Source: Atopobium sp. oral taxon 416 (GTDB lineage Bacteria; Actinomycetota; Coriobacteriia; Coriobacteriales; Atopobiaceae). From it: a stretch of DNA of 64,000 nt. This document shows positions 2,530-30,593 of the stretch, one piece after another; position 1 is the stretch's first letter, and each line of letters opens with the position of its first letter. The stretch lies in assembly GCF_018128285.1 (NCBI RefSeq), contig NZ_CP072380.1, forward strand, positions 2,480,001-2,544,000, read 5' to 3'. Below the pieces are notes generated by a model. That model was not told the DNA's origin. It saw nothing but the letters and a program-made list of their open reading frames with translations, and did not search any database. The position numbers and the translations under genes were made by a program.

Positions 2530-3698
2530 ACCTCTGTGGGCCTATTCAGCCTCGGCTATACCGCTTATGTACCATTCTTCCGGCGTGTCGCAGCTAAGCG
2601 TATGGTGAATCCGCCTGCTGTTGTAGAACTCAACGAACTTTGCGATGGTGTCCTTGAGCTCTGGCAGGCGTGCTGTATTTTGTCTGCCTTTAGGCATTCG
2701 CTCTTGAGGGTCTGAAACTATCTCTCTATCAAAGCGTTGTCCTTCCATCTCACCCTTTCGTCCATGCTCTGGGATATCCCTTTGGATGCGAGCAGAAAGA
2801 CGTACTCCTTAGAGCCGAAGAACGCTCCCCTGCTCGAAGTTCATGGTAAAGGGTATCCCCATGCTCCCTGAAAGCCTGCTTGGCGCGTGTAGCGATCTCC
2901 TGTGCTCTGCATGGTGTCAAAGAGCCTTCCAGCAGACGATGTAGCGGCTAAACCAGTCGATGAGCGAGCTTAAGATACAAGGTGCTTCCCTTCGATCTGG
3001 ACATAGGTGGATGTCGGTGGACCACACCTGGTTGGGGAACAGGACACCTTGCCCTTCAAGAGATAGAGGAACCTTCTGGATGCCCAGGAGGGTACCGGAG
3101 GAGACGGCAGCGTACAGCATGGGCTGGATGCCTGCAAGCTCCATCAGCCTTAAGACACCCTGTAGCGGGTGGCATGTGCCTCTCCTTGCTTTTGCAGCAT
3201 CCTCTATATCTTCCTTGCCCCATAAAGGCGGGGCAGTCGATGTGTATGGCATCGATCAGTGCAAAAAAGCCTCTCGTCCTCGCCCAACCAGATCTGCCCA
3301 TCCTCCATAGACCCGTCTGCGGGACCTCTGGCGATGTCGCGCTATGCTATGGCCCTGCTCATGCCCAAAAGCTTACCTGCAGCTGCCTTACGCCTTGGAG
3401 CTATATGCGTTGTCGTCACAAACCCGCTAGAGGAAGTCGCACTTAACGCTAAAGCTGCCTGATCGTCTTGAGAGCATCGTCATACCTTCGCCTGCTCCTT
3501 GCTTGCGCGTTTCGTTCTTGCCTTGCCGAATATGTCGTCGGAGCCCGCCAGCAGCTCGTCTTTTCAGCTGGCCGCTAGCGACGGACTCTCGCCGTGCTTC
3601 GCTGCTACCGGGGAGAGCGTCTCCTGCTCCTTTTCGACCTCAAGCGCTACCTTCATCTTGAACTGCGGGCTGTAGGTCTTCCTTGTCGTCTTTGACAT
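2530..3698 (-). pseudogene. IS3-family transposase (orfA and orfB), frameshifted
   Basis: OrfA starts at 3698 (MSKTTRKTYSPQFKMKVALE; the HTH part AAKHGESPSL follows). It then continues in other frames with DELLAGSDDIFGKARTKRAS. OrfB is recognisable from FPNQVWSTDI and SLIDWFSRYIV (2917-3252), from ALIERYFQTLKSECLK, and from the C-terminal FVEFYNSRRIHHTLSCDTPE (2542-2748). These are the usual landmarks of the IS3 DDE domain. Several frameshifts and stops make it inactive. Its OrfA end abuts the broken HAD gene, so insertion probably destroyed the 3' part of that gene. Confidence 0.75.
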
Positions 3699-10130: not shown

Positions 10131-10715
10131 ATGAGAGCAAGCGAATGGGCAAAAAGAGAAGGATTGAACGTCCAGACAGTATGGAAGTGGTGCCGTGAGG
10201 GGCGGATGCCCGTGCCCTTCGAGAAGACCTCGACGGGGATCATCCTCATACACGACCCCAAATACGAGAGGAACGAAGCGAAAGCCCCGTCGGGTAGGAC
10301 GGTCTGCTACGCCCGCGTCTCGTCGGGCGACCAAAAGGACGACCTGCAGAGGCAGGCGGACCGACTCAAGGCGTTCGCAATCGGCATGGGAGTCGAGCAC
10401 CCCGAGGTCGTCAAGGAGACCGGAAGCGGCATGAACGAGCGCAGGCGCAAGCTGAACCGCCTTCTCGCGGACCCGACCGTGGGGACGATCATCGTCGAGC
10501 ACCGCGACCGCCTGGCGCGGATGAACGCGGGCCTGATCGAGAGCGCCCTTTCGGCGCAGGGCCGCCGCGTCGTGGTGGTGGACGACACCGAGCGCGACGA
10601 CGACCTGGTGCGCGACATGACCGAGGTGCTCACGTCCTTCTGCGCCCGGCTCTACGGAAGGCGGGTGGCCAAGCACAAGGCCCAGGCGGCCATGAAGGCG
10701 GCCGACGATGCTTGA
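10131..10715 (+). CDS. tnpA: IS607-family serine recombinase TnpA
   Basis: This 194-residue protein has a MerR-like DNA-binding start (ASEWAKREGLNVQTVWKWCR) and a small serine-recombinase domain (VCYARVSSGDQKDDLQRQAD, with the nucleophile serine in YARVSS, then VVKETGSGMNERRRKLNRLL and IIVEHRDRLAR). It cuts and joins the IS607 ends through a covalent serine-DNA link. The length is normal for the family and the frame is intact. Its last codons overlap tnpB by eight bases. The gene is much more GC-rich than the surrounding pseudogenes, which points to recent arrival. Since the right end of the element is lost, it can no longer move its own copy. Confidence 0.92.
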   Translation: MRASEWAKREGLNVQTVWKWCREGRMPVPFEKTSTGIILIHDPKYERNEAKAPSGRTVCYARVSSGDQKDDLQRQADRLKAFAIGMGVEHPEVVKETGSGMNERRRKLNRLLADPTVGTIIVEHRDRLARMNAGLIESALSAQGRRVVVVDDTERDDDLVRDMTEVLTSFCARLYGRRVAKHKAQAAMKAADDA

Positions 10716-11313
10716 GGCCATGAAGGTGGCCCTCGACCCCACGCCGCGCCAGGAGAGGGCGCTGCTGTCCCACGCCGGCGCTGCGCGGTTCGCGTACAAC
10801 GCGGCCCTCGCTCACGTGAAATCCCAGATCGAGGCCGGAAAGAGGCCCGATTGGTCCTATTGCTCCCTGCGCAGGTGGTGGAACGCCGGCAAGGACGGGC
10901 TTGCCCCCTGGTGGCGCGAGAACAGCAAAGAGGCCTACAACGCCGGCCTGGAATCACTCGGCCGCGCCCTCAAGAACTACTCCGCGTCCAAGGCGGGCGA
11001 GCGCAAGGGGCGGCGCGCGGGCTTCCCAAGGTTCAAGACCAAGGACGGGGCTGCGCCCTCCTACTCGTACACCACAGGCTCCTTCGGCCCGATCGACGGC
11101 GACCCCAAGGCGCTCAAGCTCCCGCGCGTCGGGCGCGTCCACTGCTTCGAGGACGTCGCGCGGCGCGTCGGCGACGCGAAGGTCACGCGCATGACGATCT
11201 CCCGGAGGGCGGGACGGTGGTACGCCTCGCTTTCGGTCGAGAGGCCGGGTGGCGTCCCGGCCCCCGTTCGGGGCAGACCGTCGGTCGGCGTCGACCTCGG
11301 CGTCAAGGAGTGA
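10708..11313 (+). pseudogene. tnpB: TnpB (IS607 type), cut at the RuvC-I motif
   Basis: The frame encodes the wedge/REC part of TnpB (MKVALDPTPRQERALLSHAG, FAYNAALAHVKSQIEAG, RRAGFPRFKTKDGAAPSYSY). It ends at VGVDLGVKE, exactly where the first RuvC aspartate occurs, and stops two codons before the IS3 element at 11316. The rest of the RuvC domain, the zinc finger and the omega-RNA end are missing. TnpB normally has about 400 residues; 201 remain. It cannot be a working guided nuclease. Confidence 0.9.
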
Positions 11314-11315
11314 GC

Positions 11316-12712
11316 TGTAATCTTTTGGTGGACAGTGGGATTCAGGGACTAACAACAGATATGCTCTGTCCAGATACCCACCTACCAACACCAGCAGATT
11401 GAAGAGATGAGATGTCGGTAAGCGCAAGCGAGATAGAGAAGGCAAAGTCCCGCACGAAGTCGGAAACACCCAAACACTACACTGAGGAAGTATTGCCTTG
11501 AGGCTATCGACTACTACAGGAAGGCACGTAAGGCCAACCCGAAGAAGAGCATCAAAGGATGCGCCGCGAAGCTTGAGGCCAACGGCAAGACCTTAAACGA
11601 CTGGATCATCAAGCACTCAAAGACCAAAAGGGTGACCCAGGAAAGGACCGACGAGCACAAGCAGCTCGACGCAGTGAACAGGCGCATACACGAGCTCGAA
11701 AGCGAAAATAAGTTCCTAAAAAGAGGCAGCCTTCTTCGCCGGAAGCCTCTGTTGAAGGACAGGTTTTAGCTCATGCTGGAGAAGAGGGCAACCTACAGCG
11801 TCTCGATGATGGAGCGCGTACTGGAGGTGAGCAGGTCCGGCTTCTACAGATGGCTCAAGGCCAAAGGCGGTGAGGACTCGTGGGGTCCTATCAAGGAGGC
11901 CATCTGCGCGATATGGGAGGAAAGCGACAGGCGCTTTAGCTTTCGCAAGGTCTGGGCCAAGCTCACAGGAGATCCGAAGTTACGCAAAATTTACAGGCAC
12001 GACCCGCTACCGTGTGCGAAGGTGCATGGCTAAGCTTGGGCATCTGCGGCATCTGATCCAATGCCTCCAAGAGAACGATACTGCCCGCACCTGATACCCC
12101 CGAGCGCCCCGACCTCACCCGGCGCGGCTTTTCGTGTCCTGTTCCGACAGCCAAGCTCGTGGGCGATACAACCTATCGCAGGACCACGGCAGGCTTTATA
12201 TATCTTACCGTCGCACACGATCTGTGCACACACATGGTGGTGGGCTGAAGCATACAGGACAACATGAGGGCAGGCCTTGTCGTCTTTGCCCTGAAGATGG
12301 CATATTCGCGCGGATACGTGGCCAAAGGGGCCATATTCTAAGCAGCCCAGGCAGCCAGTACATAAGCTCAAAGCTGGCCGCCTGCTCAGCCGTACCCGAC
12401 GTGAGGCTCTCCGTGGGGAGAACCGGAAGCTGCCACGACAACGCTGTAGCCGAATCCTTCTTCGCCACGCTCAAGAACGAATGGTACTACCACAAGCGCC
12501 TCTCGGACGCATCCACGACCAAGCACAAGGCACACGAGTTTAATCGAGTCATACTACAACCGCTTCCGCCCGCATAAGTCCATAGGAGATCGCGTACCGG
12601 CAGAGGTGATGCAGGAGTTCTTCGAGCGCCTCGAGAGAGGCCTTGCGTCCCGATCCAAAGGCGATGCAGACCGCATAAAAAATCTGAGATTTCTCTGTCC
12701 ATTATATTGACA
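11316..12712 (+). mobile_element. IS3-family element, degenerate (type A copy)
   Basis: The left end starts TGTAATCTTTTGGTGGACAG and the right end finishes CTGTCCATTATATTGACA, giving TG...CA ends with a shared GGACAG core. OrfA is readable (KYCLEAIDYYRKARKANPKK, SIKGCAAKLEANGKTLNDWI, IHELESENKFLKR). OrfB follows from 11773 (TYSVSMMERVLEVSRSGFYR; VGDTTYRRTTAGFIYLTVAH; RLSVGRTGSCHDNAVAESFF; RFRPHKSIGDRVPAEVMQEF), with several shifts and stops. It truncates the IS607 tnpB. A second copy of its left end is found at 16734 on the other strand. Confidence 0.8.
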
Positions 12713-12970
12713 GGGCTCAGATCGATGCGAAGGAGGCCCTCAGGAAGCGCGTGAGGCTCTCCTTCGGGGCGAGCTACCTTCGGCTTTCGAGTCGGTGGCG
12801 GCCGATCTCAGGCGCGATAAGGCTGCACCTATCTCCTGGTGCGATCTCAAGTCCAAAGGCACAAAGATGCCGATCGTAGTCTTCTAGAAGGCCCTCCAGA
12901 TGTGCGAGGAGGGCACGCAGCATGCGGCTTCACTGACCTCATCGAGCCGAATTGATCATCGTTTCCCTAG
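12713..12970. mobile_element. unidentified IS scrap ending in an ISL3-like terminus
   Basis: Bases 12925-12970 match the reverse complement of the left end of the ISL3 element at 45505 (GAATTGATCATCGTTTCCCTAG edge plus about 25 further bases). The part before, 12713-12924, has an open plus-strand stretch (GELPSAFESVAADLRRDKAA, WCDLKSKGTKMPIVVF) that I do not recognise. The scrap cuts off the methyltransferase gene at 12971. Confidence 0.5.
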
Positions 12971-13485
12971 CGCTTGCCGGATCTTCTGCGAAACGCCAGA
13001 GGGCAAGCGCGATGATGGCCTCCAGGCGCTGCTGCGTCCACTAGCTTCTGCACAAGATGCAGGCGCGGCTCCCCTCCCGGTACATGATGCAGGAAGCCGA
13101 AACAGGCCACAAGATCTGCAGGCGCGAGCCTTTGCGGCAGCATGTCTCCCTCATTCAGAAGACCGTCCACGATATCGTGTACATAGCAGTGTGCCAAGAT
13201 GTTCTGGGGAAGCCTTTCTTCATCTATGAGAGGACGGCAAGAGTCGATAGCCTCATATGCAATCCGGACATCTGGCAGTATCTGCGCCAGGAAGCGGCCG
13301 AAGCGCAGGTTTCCGGAGGCGATATCCGTGACACGGAGCTCGTGCCTGCCTTCCACAGCCAGAAGCTCTACAATCTTTTTCCAGCCTTCCCAGGAATTCT
13401 GGTGGGGCTTGGAAAACGATGCAGCCTCAGCAGCATAGAACTCTCCTGTCACAGCAGCCAGCCTCTTCGCCAAGGTGCGTTCTAT
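12967..13485 (-). pseudogene. class I SAM-dependent methyltransferase, 3'-truncated, ATA at the start position
   Basis: About 165 residues carry a Rossmann-type methyltransferase: the SAM-binding motif I (LRVTDIASGNLRFGRFLAQI), motif II (VRIAYEAIDSC) and motif IV (PADLVACFGFLHHVPGGEPR). The C-terminal strands are lost at the IS scrap edge. The codon at proper distance from the ribosome site GGAG is ATA (13483-13485), followed by ERTLAKRLAAVTGEFYA. An in-frame TTG at 13473 is the first standard start but sits too far from the site. I infer ATG to ATA decay. The substrate is unknown. Confidence 0.65.
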
Positions 13486-13720
13486 AGTGCAATCTCCTCT
13501 CCTATCATCTTCTTCACACGATCATAGATCCTCGAGAGATTGCGCCAGATATCCTGTCTTACCTGCGCTTCTGCTGCTGATTTCTGCCCTGAAAAATGTT
13601 GCCAGTATATTTCCTACCAAATTGCTCGGAATTAATGCTTGCATTCTCTCTGCACAAGCGCTTTACTATCAAACACCAAGTGTTCGGGTAGGGATTAGAA
13701 GCTGGAAGGAGAAGACAGAC

Positions 13721-13813
13721 ATGGCAGGGATGCAGAATATGATGCGCTGTGCATGCATGCGCTGTGTCACGAAGGCAAGCCTGTCCGGAACCTGTACGCG
13801 ATGTCAGGCGTGA
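13721..13813 (+). CDS. 30-residue Cys-rich leader peptide of the symporter gene
   Basis: An ATG follows GGAAGGAG with nine-base spacing and opens a frame of 30 codons. Five of these are cysteine: three at codons 10, 12 and 15 (RCACMRC) and two at 25 and 28 (CTRC). The frame ends 30 bases before a terminator-like hairpin and 80 bases before the symporter start. A promoter-like TTGCAT-N19-TACTAT lies at 13639-13669. The arrangement is that of a transcription-attenuation leader read by ribosomes and sensitive to charged tRNA-Cys. A free-standing metal-binding micropeptide is the alternative. The gene is too short for homology claims. Confidence 0.55.
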   Translation: MAGMQNMMRCACMRCVTKASLSGTCTRCQA

Positions 13814-13874
13814 TATCTGACACTCATGTATGGCAATGCTTCGGGCAGGTCCATCAAGGACCTGCCTTCTTCTT
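13787..13874 (+). promoter_or_regulatory. putative cysteine attenuator: antiterminator and terminator
   Basis: The terminator-like hairpin has arms GGCAGGTCC (13844-13852) and GGACCTGCC (13858-13866), loop ATCAA, then TTCTTCTT. Upstream, GGAACCTG (13787-13794, codons 23-25 of the leader) can pair with CAGGTCC of the first arm with one bulged A, forming an antiterminator. A ribosome stalled at codons 10-15 leaves this segment free, while one reaching the stop covers it. The pairings are read from the sequence; function is inferred. Confidence 0.5.
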
Positions 13875-13892
13875 GGAGCGAAAGGATAAATT

Positions 13893-15260
13893 ATGGAATT
13901 CGATGCACTCTCGTTTACCGCACTTGCCGTGGCTGCTGGTCTCTTCGCCGTGCTTGCCTATCTGAAGCGAAAGCGCCATTGGGGCTTTGGCGCTCGTGTC
14001 CTTCTGGCGACGGCTTTTGGCATTGGCCTCGGTCTTGCCTTCGGCCAATCCTATACGTACTACGCCCTTGTCGGCACCATCTATGCAAACGTGATCTCCG
14101 CAATGGTCGTGCCGCTGCTCTTCTTCTCCATCATCGCGTCCATAACGAATTTGGCAGACCTCGTGCACATCAAGGCCATCGGCTGGAAGTCCGTCCTGTT
14201 CCTGCTCCTGAACACGCTGACGGCGACGCTTCTGACCCTTCTCATCGCGCTTCCGCTCCACATCGGCCAGGGTTTCTCGCTTGACGCCGTAAGCTATGAG
14301 GCAAAGACTGTGCCTTCCGTCACAGACACGATCGTCGGTCTCTTCCCGCAGAACCTCGCCACATCTTGGACGAACAACGCAGTTGTCCCTATCATCGTCT
14401 TTGCCCTGATCGTCGCTGCCGCCTATAACCGTCTCGTCCAGAAGCAGAAGGAGGCACTGTCTGAGAAGGCTGTCGATGTGAAACCCTTTAAGGCCTTCGT
14501 TGACGCCACGAACTCCATCCTCGGCAACGCCGTGAGCTGGATCGTCTCTTTCACGCCGTATGCCGTGGTCTCTCTCATCGGCCGCGCCGTGGGTCGCGCT
14601 GACATCACGCAGCTCCTGCCTCTCCTCGGTGTCCTCGTCGTTGCCTACGTAATCCTTGCCCTCCAGTTCTTCGGCGTCGAGAGCGCCTTTGTCGCCTTCA
14701 TCGGCAAGCTCAGCCCTGCCCGTTTCTTCCGTGGCATCGCACCTGCTGCGGTGACTGCCTTCACGACCCAGAGCTCTGTCGGCACAATTCCCGTCACCAT
14801 CTCCTCCCTTACGAAGAATCTCGGCGTGGATGAGGATGTTGCCTCCTTCACAGCAGGCCTTGGCGCGAACCTCGGCATGCCCGGCTGCGCTGGCATGTGG
14901 CCGACACTTGTCTCCCTCTTTGCCCTGAATGCCACCGGCACTGCCTTCACGCCCGGCCAGTATGTCCTCTTAGTCCTTCTCACCCTCGTCGTCTCCATCG
15001 GCACGGTCGGCGTCCCGGGCACGGCCACGATCACAGCAACAGCCCTTCTCGCAGCGCTCGGCCTCCCCGTCGAGACTATTGCCCTCGTTGCCCCTATCTC
15101 CTCCATCGTCGATATGGGCCGTACCGCTACGAACGTCGTGGGTGCTGCAGAGGCATCGCTTCTCGTTGCTCGCACCGAAGGCCTCGTCGACGAAGAGGTC
15201 TACAACGGAGGCGAAGCCTACAGCCTTCCTTCAAGCAAGAAGGCAGAAGCTACAGCATAA
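13893..15260 (+). CDS. dicarboxylate/amino acid:cation symporter, cystine (TcyP)-like
   Basis: This 455-residue inner-membrane protein belongs to the DAACS (SLC1-like) family of sodium- or proton-coupled carriers. It has the reentrant-loop motif as FTTQSSVGTIPVTI (residues about 290-303), LGANLGMPGCAGMWP, and the substrate-site helix VGVPGTATITATALLAALGL followed by VDMGRTATNVVG. The TQSS-GT form of the first motif resembles the TcyP cystine branch more than glutamate carriers, and the Cys-rich leader upstream fits. Eight transmembrane helices and two hairpins are expected. AAAGGA precedes the ATG. It is intact in a region of decay. Confidence 0.85.
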   Translation: MEFDALSFTALAVAAGLFAVLAYLKRKRHWGFGARVLLATAFGIGLGLAFGQSYTYYALVGTIYANVISAMVVPLLFFSIIASITNLADLVHIKAIGWKSVLFLLLNTLTATLLTLLIALPLHIGQGFSLDAVSYEAKTVPSVTDTIVGLFPQNLATSWTNNAVVPIIVFALIVAAAYNRLVQKQKEALSEKAVDVKPFKAFVDATNSILGNAVSWIVSFTPYAVVSLIGRAVGRADITQLLPLLGVLVVAYVILALQFFGVESAFVAFIGKLSPARFFRGIAPAAVTAFTTQSSVGTIPVTISSLTKNLGVDEDVASFTAGLGANLGMPGCAGMWPTLVSLFALNATGTAFTPGQYVLLVLLTLVVSIGTVGVPGTATITATALLAALGLPVETIALVAPISSIVDMGRTATNVVGAAEASLLVARTEGLVDEEVYNGGEAYSLPSSKKAEATA

Positions 15261-30210: not shown

Positions 30211-30448
30211 AGGACATCCCCTTCTATATCCGGTGCACCCGGGTCTGCTCGTTGTTTGAGCTCATAGTAGAATACCAGAGCTCTCTTTGGATTTGATCCC
30301 TCAAGATCGCACCGCTTGCGCACAGCGCGGCGCCTGTGCTTCAAAAGTATCATCATGTAATCTGATTTATTACAGCTCTGTGAATATGTCTCGCCTTGCT
30401 ACCGCAGCCTTGGTATTGGACACAGAACATGCTAGAGTGCAGCTGTAG

Positions 30449-30582
30449 GTTTCAGGGCGAGGTGCAATTCCTCACTGGTGGTAAGAAGACACATCGAGGC
30501 CTTTAAGTCCGCGCGCCGCAGAGGGGCGGCTGATTTGGTGAAAATCCAAAACCAACGGTTAGAGTCCGGATGAAAGAAACGG
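30449..30582 (+). ncRNA. FMN riboswitch (RFN element)
   Basis: The aptamer core is recognisable from TTTCAGGGCGAGGTGCAATT, CTCACTGGTGGTAAG, AGTCCGCGCGCC, TGATTTGGTGAAAATCCAAA and ACCAACGGTTAGAGTCCGGA. The closing stem GTTTC/GAAAC ends two to three bases before the GGAGG of ribU. No room exists for a separate terminator, so control is probably at translation initiation: FMN binding would hold the stem and hide the ribosome site. Confidence 0.95.
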
Positions 30583-30593
30583 AGGAAGCCACT

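What the first reader, a model, noticed from the sequence alone, without database searches (positions are those of the whole stretch)
13639..13893. Cys-codon leader peptide and attenuator before a cystine-type symporter
A ribosome-site-preceded 30-codon frame with five cysteine codons (10, 12, 15, 25, 28) is followed by a perfect 9-bp terminator-like stem with a T-rich tail, then by the symporter gene. GGAACCTG inside codons 23-25 can pair with the first terminator arm. The geometry gives textbook attenuation: stalling at codons 10-15 frees the antiterminator, and completion of the peptide favours the terminator. Cysteine attenuators of this type are known in other actinobacteria for cysteine synthesis genes; one controlling cystine uptake in this class would be new as far as I know.
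Basis: partly seen in the sequence, partly recalled or inferred. Interest (0 to 1): 0.75.

Follow-up and report, generated by a model that had tools for sequence, protein, structure and literature searches.

The report
Cysteine-sensing leader controlling cystine uptake
In front of a bacterium's probable cystine importer sits a tiny cysteine-rich reading frame and an RNA switch that probably turn the importer on when cysteine runs short, and unrelated versions of the same idea precede related importer genes in other bacteria.

Summary
Window 13721-13813 is a 30-codon frame with a ribosome site and five Cys codons, followed by a 9-bp terminator-like hairpin (13843-13867) and an SDF-family symporter (13893-15260). 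The same-genus genome G002 (symporter 93% identical) keeps a five-Cys leader, the hairpin with a better T-run, and a promoter-like block, although the leader regions are only 68% identical. Orthologues elsewhere carry Cys-codon leaders that look unrelated in sequence: 20 of 39 non-bifidobacterial loci, 0 of 30 bifidobacterial loci, 7 of 118 control genes. Some have terminators, others hairpins over the ribosome site. An operator-like motif (near CCTA-N9-TAGG) lies at many of these promoters, and Rrf2 regulator genes lie near some of the genes. Best reading: a ribosome-mediated cysteine attenuator on a TcyP-like cystine symporter. No expression data exist here, and folding leaves some points open. 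Cysteine attenuators were known before; the uptake target and the spread are what is new.

The parts
13639..13667 (+). promoter candidate: TTGCAT (13639-13644), 17-nt spacer, TTTACT (13662-13667)
   Evidence: G002 has TTGCAA-N17-TTTACT at the equivalent place in a conserved block. Not listed by the tool's scan, which asks for A at position 2 of the -10 and lists a rival site at 13716-13743 instead. Inferred.
13676..13692 (.). operator-like site CCAAGTGTTCGGGTAGG (pattern C[CA][TA]A-N9-TAG[GA]), possibly for a CymR-like Rrf2 repressor
   Evidence: Same pattern upstream of 18 of 39 non-bifidobacterial orthologues, shuffles mean 1.33, maximum 5; 0 of 30 bifidobacterial loci. The pattern was chosen on these sequences. 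Rrf2 genes lie near the symporter (G431) or cysK-type genes (G634, G467, G466).
13706..13711 (+). Shine-Dalgarno-like AAGGAG of the leader peptide
   Evidence: Sequence; G002 has GGAGAGGAGA before its leader.
13721..13813 (+). leader peptide ORF, 30 codons, Cys at 10, 12, 15, 25, 28
   Evidence: G002 counterpart MLNARSIMKSSMCMCCDRCLSGTPVRCRR with Cys at 13, 15, 16, 19, 27.
13748..13765 (+). first Cys codon cluster (codons 10, 12, 15): predicted ribosome stall site
   Evidence: Sequence; footprint model.
13779..13789 (+). antiterminator 5' arm GCCTGTCCGGA (codons 20-23)
   Evidence: Best duplex with the terminator 5' arm, -18.9 kcal/mol, reached by 7 of 2000 shuffles; G002 -21.8, 9 of 2000; GCCTGTCCGG identical in both genomes.
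13791..13838 (+). inner stem of the antiterminator hairpin, overlapping the leader's end
   Evidence: Predicted in both genomes, with similar shape.
13840..13850 (+). antiterminator 3' arm TTCGGGCAGGT, overlapping the terminator 5' arm
   Evidence: TTCGGGCAGG identical in both genomes; 28-pair antiterminator in each, 19 column pairs shared.
13843..13867 (+). intrinsic-terminator-like hairpin, T-rich tail to about 13874
   Evidence: G002 counterpart has one C-A mismatch and tail ATTTTTTATT.
13893..15260 (+). SDF-family symporter, TcyP-like, 455 aa: the controlled gene
   Evidence: Pfam SDF 1.4e-94; of four E. coli SDF proteins closest to TcyP (138 bits; GltP 113, DctA 84, SstT 38), sharing with TcyP alone an extra residue in the GCAG motif.

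Best explanation
This is a ribosome-mediated transcription attenuator that senses charged tRNA-Cys and controls a cystine/cysteine symporter. When cysteine is short, the ribosome stalls at Cys codons 10-15 of the leader, leaving 13779 onwards free. GCCTGTCCGGA then pairs with TTCGGGCAGGT in a long hairpin that uses up the terminator's first arm, and RNA polymerase reads on into the symporter. When cysteine is ample, the ribosome runs on through the antiterminator's 5' half to the stop codon, the hairpin does not form in time, and the terminator at 13843-13867 stops transcription. A CymR-like Rrf2 repressor probably adds a second layer at the promoter. Shown by sequence: leader, Cys cluster, competing pairings, conservation in G002, recurrence of Cys leaders at orthologues. 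Inferred: stalling, termination, transcript start, substrate, repressor.
For: G002 keeps promoter block, SD, a five-Cys leader, antiterminator arms and terminator. The arm pairing is stronger than in all but 7 and 9 of 2000 shuffles. Before the terminator's 3' arm is made, the free RNA folds at -33.9 kcal/mol (window) and -41.9 (G002) with the ribosome at the first Cys, against -6.2 and -4.2 with it at the stop. SD-led leaders with at least 2 Cys in 5 codons: 20 of 39 non-bifidobacterial orthologue loci, 0 of 30 bifidobacterial loci, 7 of 118 control genes (of the 7, one is a symporter locus and one a second device of this kind); Cys is the most enriched of 20 amino acids, Fisher 2.3e-9. By eye the leaders have nothing in common between lineages but the Cys codons. 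In L049 and, more weakly, L072 and L073 the predicted antiterminator arm starts soon after the first Cys codons. The design also stands before cysK-type and M20 genes in some Bacillota. The symporter is nearest to TcyP of four E. coli SDF proteins.
Against: No expression, transcript-end or ribosome data. Only one other genome shows the window's own device; in G001 the symporter is cut off at a contig end. The window's T-tail is interrupted. At equilibrium the finished window terminator wins (P 0.89 and 0.80) with a ribosome at codon 10 or 15; in G002 the antiterminator wins for a stall at Cys 13 but not at Cys 15 or 19. A promoter-like site lies inside the leader at 13716-13743. 19 of 39 non-bifidobacterial loci fail the Cys-leader criterion, among them L004 (75% identity) and L003. 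Loci are related, so the Fisher value overstates; Arg is enriched too (16 of 39 against 11 of 118, P 2.5e-5). In the simple model L075, L076 and L079 show no switch at the terminator, and L066, L067 and L083 no clear opening of the ribosome site at the first Cys.
Confidence: 0.8

Rival explanations
1. The leader is translated and Cys-dependent, but acts mainly on translation of the symporter or through Rho, the hairpin being a weak terminator.
For: The window's T-tail is interrupted. L050, L051 and L069 have no terminator found but a hairpin over the symporter's ribosome site, which a ribosome at the first Cys codon opens in the model (P unpaired 0.31 to 0.77, 0.39 to 0.76, 0.29 to 0.66). Published Cys leaders in Mycobacterium lack terminators (PMC1262725, parts 1 and 2 of 3 read).
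Against: G002 has a good T-run and both genomes have a competing antiterminator. The window's symporter SD-like AAAGGA (13881-13886) lies outside the hairpin.
Confidence: 0.13
2. Control is by a CymR-like Rrf2 repressor at the promoter only; the Cys codons are incidental.
For: Operator-like motif in 18 of 39 non-bifidobacterial loci. Sharpea azabuensis (L055) has CCTACTTATGAAGTAGG, with 7-base inverted arms, and no Cys leader; an Rrf2 match begins 887 nt after that symporter match.
Against: Does not explain Cys codons recurring in different leaders or the conserved antiterminator arms.
Confidence: 0.05
3. A riboswitch or T-box rather than a translated leader.
For: In Clostridium perfringens the transporters cysP1 and cysP2 are under cysteine T-boxes (PMC2940859, passages).
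Against: No Rfam family reaches its gathering score at 13639-13893, T-box included, while the FMN riboswitch elsewhere in the window is found.
Confidence: 0.01
4. Chance: a Cys-rich short frame next to an unrelated hairpin.
For: SD-led short frames with at least 3 Cys are not rare (10 of 111).
Against: Conservation in G002 and recurrence at orthologues.
Confidence: 0.01

Closest known systems
Cysteine leader peptides before cys operons of Mycobacterium and P. acnes and cbs of B. longum (Seliverstov 2005, PMC1262725; parts 1-2 of 3 read); Canestrari 2020, polycysteine leaderless ORFs in mycobacteria (title seen in another paper's reference list; paper not held)
   Same: Short ORF with Cys codons upstream of a cysteine gene in Actinobacteria; control by cysteine supply.
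   Different: Those of PMC1262725 serve cys and cbs genes, have Cys runs near the stop and no conserved terminator hairpins. Here a transporter, a Shine-Dalgarno-led leader, a terminator and an antiterminator.
uORFC-8-2 motif before cysS of Rhodobacterales (PMC8632094, passages read)
   Same: Leader ORF with tandem Cys codons in a stem, run of U at the 3' end; proposed ribosome-mediated attenuation.
   Different: Controls a tRNA synthetase in alphaproteobacteria; no sequence link shown or tested.
Classical trp attenuators of Corynebacterium and Streptomyces (PMC1262725)
   Same: Leader peptide with regulatory codons, competing antiterminator and terminator.
   Different: Amino acid, target and sequences.
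Cysteine T-box control of the cysP1/cysP2 symporters in Clostridium perfringens (PMC2940859, passages)
   Same: Cysteine supply, read through tRNA-Cys, controls a cyst(e)ine symporter by premature termination.
   Different: tRNA binds the RNA directly; no translated leader. Whether CysP1/2 belong to the window's subfamily was not tested.
TcyP (YdjN) cystine symporter of E. coli
   Same: SDF family, GCAG motif, DMGRTxxN motif.
   Different: 28% identity over 447 columns; substrate of the window protein untested.

Membership tests
Ribosome-mediated (classical) transcription attenuator | Leader ORF with ribosome site | tested here: met
   ORF and SD present, counterpart in G002; translation itself not measured.
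Ribosome-mediated (classical) transcription attenuator | Cluster of codons for the regulated amino acid | tested here: met
   Cys 10, 12, 15 (window); 13, 15, 16, 19 (G002); the only one of 111 frames with at least 5 Cys in 464 kb.
Ribosome-mediated (classical) transcription attenuator | Intrinsic terminator between leader and gene | tested here: met
   13843-13867; tail imperfect in window, good in G002.
Ribosome-mediated (classical) transcription attenuator | Competing antiterminator whose 5' arm is free when the ribosome stalls and blocked when it runs on | tested here: met
   for RNA ending before the terminator 3' arm. With the full terminator, met at equilibrium only in G002 for a stall at Cys 13, not in the window and not at Cys 15 or 19 of G002.
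Ribosome-mediated (classical) transcription attenuator | Pairing conserved through sequence change | tested here: inconclusive
   Two sequences only: of 28 window pairs, in G002 15 unchanged, 6 changed on one side, 2 on both, 5 broken.
Ribosome-mediated (classical) transcription attenuator | Readthrough rises when the charged tRNA falls | not testable with these tools
   Needs an experiment.
T-box leader | Match to the T-box covariance model | tested here: not met
   No match at 13639-13893. Of nine relatives' loci scanned, one T-box, in L080 at 2796-3034, behind the symporter rather than before it.
TcyP cystine symporters | SDF family, closest to TcyP, GCAG motif | tested here: inconclusive
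   Pfam SDF; closest of four E. coli SDF proteins, shared motif; NCBIfam models that hit E. coli TcyP and the window protein are GltP and DctA, all far below cut-off. Transport not tested.
CymR/Rrf2 regulon | Operator bound by an Rrf2 repressor | tested here: inconclusive
   Motif pattern and gene neighbourhood only; the name CymR is recalled and was matched to no model.

The most novel reading that the evidence does not exclude
A cysteine regulon spread over Coriobacteriia and several Bacillota lineages combines an Rrf2-type operator at the promoter with short Cys-codon leader peptides that were invented or rebuilt many times. The leaders feed transcription terminators in some lineages and hairpins over the ribosome site in others, ahead of a cystine symporter, cysK-type genes and an M20 amidohydrolase. 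In these lineages leader peptides may take the place that cysteine T-boxes hold in clostridia.
Probability: 0.55. Interest if true: 0.7.

Novelty: new variant of a known kind. Interest (0 to 1): 0.6.

Why it matters
Leader codons name the amino acid, so the leaders give a probable substrate (cystine or cysteine) to an SDF symporter group whose only NCBIfam matches here are sub-cut-off hits to glutamate and dicarboxylate models. The finding extends cysteine attenuation from synthesis genes and cysS to uptake, into Coriobacteriia and Bacillota, and offers a set of different leaders at one gene with which to test how attenuators arise and turn over.

Tried and rejected

The frame MAIICHRMC... of the Tractidigestivibacter group (-105 to -6) was first taken as a Cys leader. 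I now treat it as doubtful: in L003 the start reads ATA, in L036 the first Cys is Tyr. It supplies 5 of the 20 positives; without the seven loci of that group the count is 15 of 32 (lists).

Slips: the Cys labels of G002 are off by one (its codon-15 row is a true Cys codon); one search has the right numbers. In one search the G002 upstream string overlapped the arm by 4 bases. L075 and L076 have CCC leaders missed by the ribosome-site filter.

Rows dropped: of 88 oriented loci, 16 are the same locus fetched twice or an identical one (identical 150 nt upstream) and 3 are cut-off genes (L005, L048, L084), leaving 69. Not examined: distant SDF matches (L007-L030) and L064; 15 of the 45 bifidobacterial matches (14 genomes and a second copy in G1110), for which no DNA was fetched.

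Viral contigs gave no relative of the symporter and two pattern matches that read as unrelated coding DNA; plasmids gave none. In G000, 4 of 5 cysK-type (PALP) matches and 3 of 3 M20 matches were examined and none has a Cys leader by the criterion used.

Full report
WHAT IS THERE. The window lies in a 3.0-Mb single-contig genome (G000) whose nearest named relatives are Olsenella and Tractidigestivibacter records (titles); Olsenella is in Coriobacteriia. At 13721-13813 there is a 30-codon frame MAGMQNMMRCACMRCVTKASLSGTCTRCQA with AAGGAG nine bases before it. A 9-bp GC-rich hairpin with a T-rich tail follows at 13843-13876, then a 455-aa SDF symporter at 13893-15260. In 464 kb of this genome it is the only one of 111 frames of 10-45 codons with a strong ribosome site that has five or more Cys, and the only one of the 10 with at least three Cys that is followed by a terminator-like hairpin and a gene.

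CONSERVATION IN THE GENUS. Sixty genomes, the own one included, were searched with the symporter; 26 had some SDF match, and two others of the genus have a close one: G002 (93%) and G001 (91%, cut off at a contig start, so without upstream DNA). G002 has the leader MLNARSIMKSSMCMCCDRCLSGTPVRCRR, a ribosome site, and a terminator-like hairpin with tail ATTTTTTATT at the same places. The leader regions are 68% identical, yet GCCTGTCCGG and TTCGGGCAGG are unchanged. A promoter-like block TTGCA(T/A)-N17-TTTACT is also kept and would place the start upstream of the leader. Against this, the promoter scan lists not this block but a site inside the leader, 13716-13743.

THE SWITCH. GCCTGTCCGGA (13779-13789) pairs with TTCGGGCAGGT (13840-13850), which overlaps the terminator's first arm. 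Duplex energy is -18.9 kcal/mol in the window (7 of 2000 dinucleotide shuffles as good) and -21.8 in G002 (9 of 2000). With the A site at codon 15 and an assumed 15-nt reach from the first base of that codon, the first free base is 13778, just before this arm. Before the terminator's second arm is made, the free RNA folds to -33.9 (window, first Cys) and -41.9 (G002), against -6.2 and -4.2 with the ribosome at the stop codon. Each genome forms a 28-pair antiterminator; 19 pairs fall in the same columns, and of the window's 28 pairs G002 leaves 15 unchanged, changes 6 on one side and 2 on both, and breaks 5. Against: once complete, the window's terminator is favoured at equilibrium (P 0.89 and 0.80 for codons 10 and 15), so its switch must be kinetic. 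In G002 the antiterminator wins for a stall at Cys 13 (P of terminator 0.09) but not at Cys 15 (0.88, whose labels are partly off by one but whose row is modelled at codon 15) or Cys 19 (0.89).

THE SAME IDEA ELSEWHERE. I searched the family (140 genomes, 12 with a match at E 1e-60 or better), the class (396, 14 at 1e-80), the order of G428 (315, 19), the order of G427 (344, 8) and the family of G430 (189, 44); one collection scan gave 17 loci. G428 and G427 are the genomes of L050 and L049, G430 that of L052. These groups overlap in part. 88 loci were oriented and given start codons; 69 remained after 16 duplicates and 3 cut-off genes were dropped. A leader was called if an SD-led frame of 7-50 codons within 300 nt had at least two Cys in five codons. 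Result: 20 of 39 non-bifidobacterial loci, 0 of 30 bifidobacterial loci, 7 of 118 control genes with at least 120 nt upstream, taken from 20 stretches of related genomes and the window. Of the 7 control hits, L124 is a symporter locus itself and L125 a second device of this kind. Cys is the most enriched residue (P 2.3e-9); Arg is second (16 of 39 against 11 of 118, P 2.5e-5). The loci are related, so P overstates; by eye there are about eight leader types, not counting the doubtful Tractidigestivibacter frame, without which the count is 15 of 32. Examples: MKIIFKLKQKNYKKDSYMCCSCCSCCCCCIPLTI (L083), MEILCCCTFSNYNGNTKV (L075, missed by the filter), MKKSCCCKIINNKYNLTGDF (L080), MSFRLNRIVCCHNRC (L072)...SMCCRML... 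(L049). The order of G428 includes Thomasclavelia and Sharpea, Bacillota.

FORMS OF THE DEVICE. Hairpins with T-runs stand between leader and symporter in L049, L075, L076, L079, L080 (found by the scan) and in L071-L074 and L078 (seen; not by that scan). In L049 the RNA after the first Cys folds to -40.9 before the second arm against -1.5 at the stop, though the finished terminator is preferred at equilibrium (P 0.79). In L072 and L073 the predicted antiterminator arm is the last Cys codon plus the stop codon (TGTTGAA with TTCAACA), a modest effect (P of arm pairing 0.54 at the first Cys, 0.36-0.43 at the stop). L078 and L080 shift from P(terminator) 0.23 and 0.34 at the first Cys to 0.78 and 0.96 at the stop. 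L075, L076 and L079 show no switch (all). In L050, L051 and L069 a hairpin covers the symporter's ribosome site and a ribosome at the Cys codons opens it; a ribosome at the stop codon opens it too, so dwell time would matter. L066, L067 and L083 show no clear opening at the first Cys (all). L004, L003, L040, L055, L056, L081 and L082 are among the 19 loci without a leader by the criterion.

A SECOND LAYER AND A REGULON. A motif C[CA][TA]A-N9-TAG[GA] occurs within 250 nt upstream in 18 of 39 non-bifidobacterial loci (shuffles mean 1.33, maximum 5) and 0 of 30 bifidobacterial ones; the pattern was chosen after seeing the sequences. In the window it is 13676-13692. The control gene in L125 (G467; the Pfam search matches M20 at the same place) carries the motif, leader MNTTNKINQNMMCMCSCIQ... 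and a terminator-like hairpin. A directed look at 30 PALP and 30 M20 loci found Cys leaders in 3 and 4: leader plus motif before cysK-type genes in G634 (MTIRQMCCCWCMCTR) and G466 (MNELIFYKNRGCC), leaders before M20 genes in G466, G467 and G468, and two that look like chance (L159, L194; no motif). Rrf2 matches lie about 154, 181 and 230 nt from cysK-type matches in G634, G467 and G466, and 887 nt after the symporter in G431 (coordinates). Rrf2 genes occur in 11 of 11 genomes searched and 10 of 14 controls, so presence alone says little. In G000, 4 of 5 PALP and 3 of 3 M20 matches were examined and none has a Cys leader.

THE SYMPORTER. Of four E. coli SDF proteins it scores 138 bits with TcyP, 113 with GltP, 84 with DctA and 38 with SstT, and shares with TcyP alone an extra residue making GCAG(M/L)(W/Y)P. 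The best-scoring solved relatives are aspartate and glutamate transporters, E 1.5e-57 and weaker. Cystine or cysteine as substrate is inference, helped by the leaders themselves.

WHAT IS KNOWN. Cys leaders are described before cys operons of Mycobacterium and P. acnes and cbs of B. longum, without clear terminators (PMC1262725, parts 1-2 of 3 read), and before cysS of Rhodobacterales with a 3' run of U (PMC8632094, passages). Translation attenuation of cysteine genes in M. smegmatis is cited in PMC13236596 (passages). Cysteine T-boxes control symporters in C. perfringens (PMC2940859, passages). PMC2494555 (T-boxes, passages) added nothing on this point. Ten searches of the open library listed no title or abstract start about Cys-codon leaders before a cystine symporter; two of the lists were cut short (20 of 24,724, 15 of 52), and the library lacks most subscription papers.

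VERDICT. It remains a prediction.

Noticed in passing
10131-12577: Mobile-element remains upstream: a resolvase-type ORF (Pfam Resolvase), a TnpB-like piece (HTH_OrfB_IS605 only, 201 aa), and pieces that resemble an IS3-type transposase (recalled; the one tested has no Pfam hit).
   Followed up: partly
12967-13473 (-): A 168-aa methyltransferase-like ORF (Methyltransf_12, 26 bits, below the Pfam cut-off), perhaps a broken gene.
   Followed up: partly
30444-30585 (+): FMN riboswitch (Rfam RF00050, 100 bits).
   Followed up: no
L033 1501-1531 (G007:C18:10626-10656): A 29-31-base match (90%) to the window's terminator hairpin on another contig of G007, away from its symporter; its context was not read.
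   Followed up: no
L125 gene at 2866; L181-L183: M20-type amidohydrolase genes in G466-G468 preceded by a leader with MCMCSCIQ, with operator-like motif and (seen in G467) a terminator-like hairpin: perhaps a cysteine-conjugate salvage enzyme under cysteine attenuation.
   Followed up: partly
L160, L157: cysK-type genes with leaders MTIRQMCCCWCMCTR and MNELIFYKNRGCC plus the operator-like motif, next to Rrf2 genes.
   Followed up: partly
L034-L039, -105 to -6: A 32-codon frame ending in RIPHLERIRHVGR, 6 nt before the symporter in the Tractidigestivibacter group, with Cys at 5 and 9 in most; role unclear (start lost in L003, one Cys lost in L036).
   Followed up: partly
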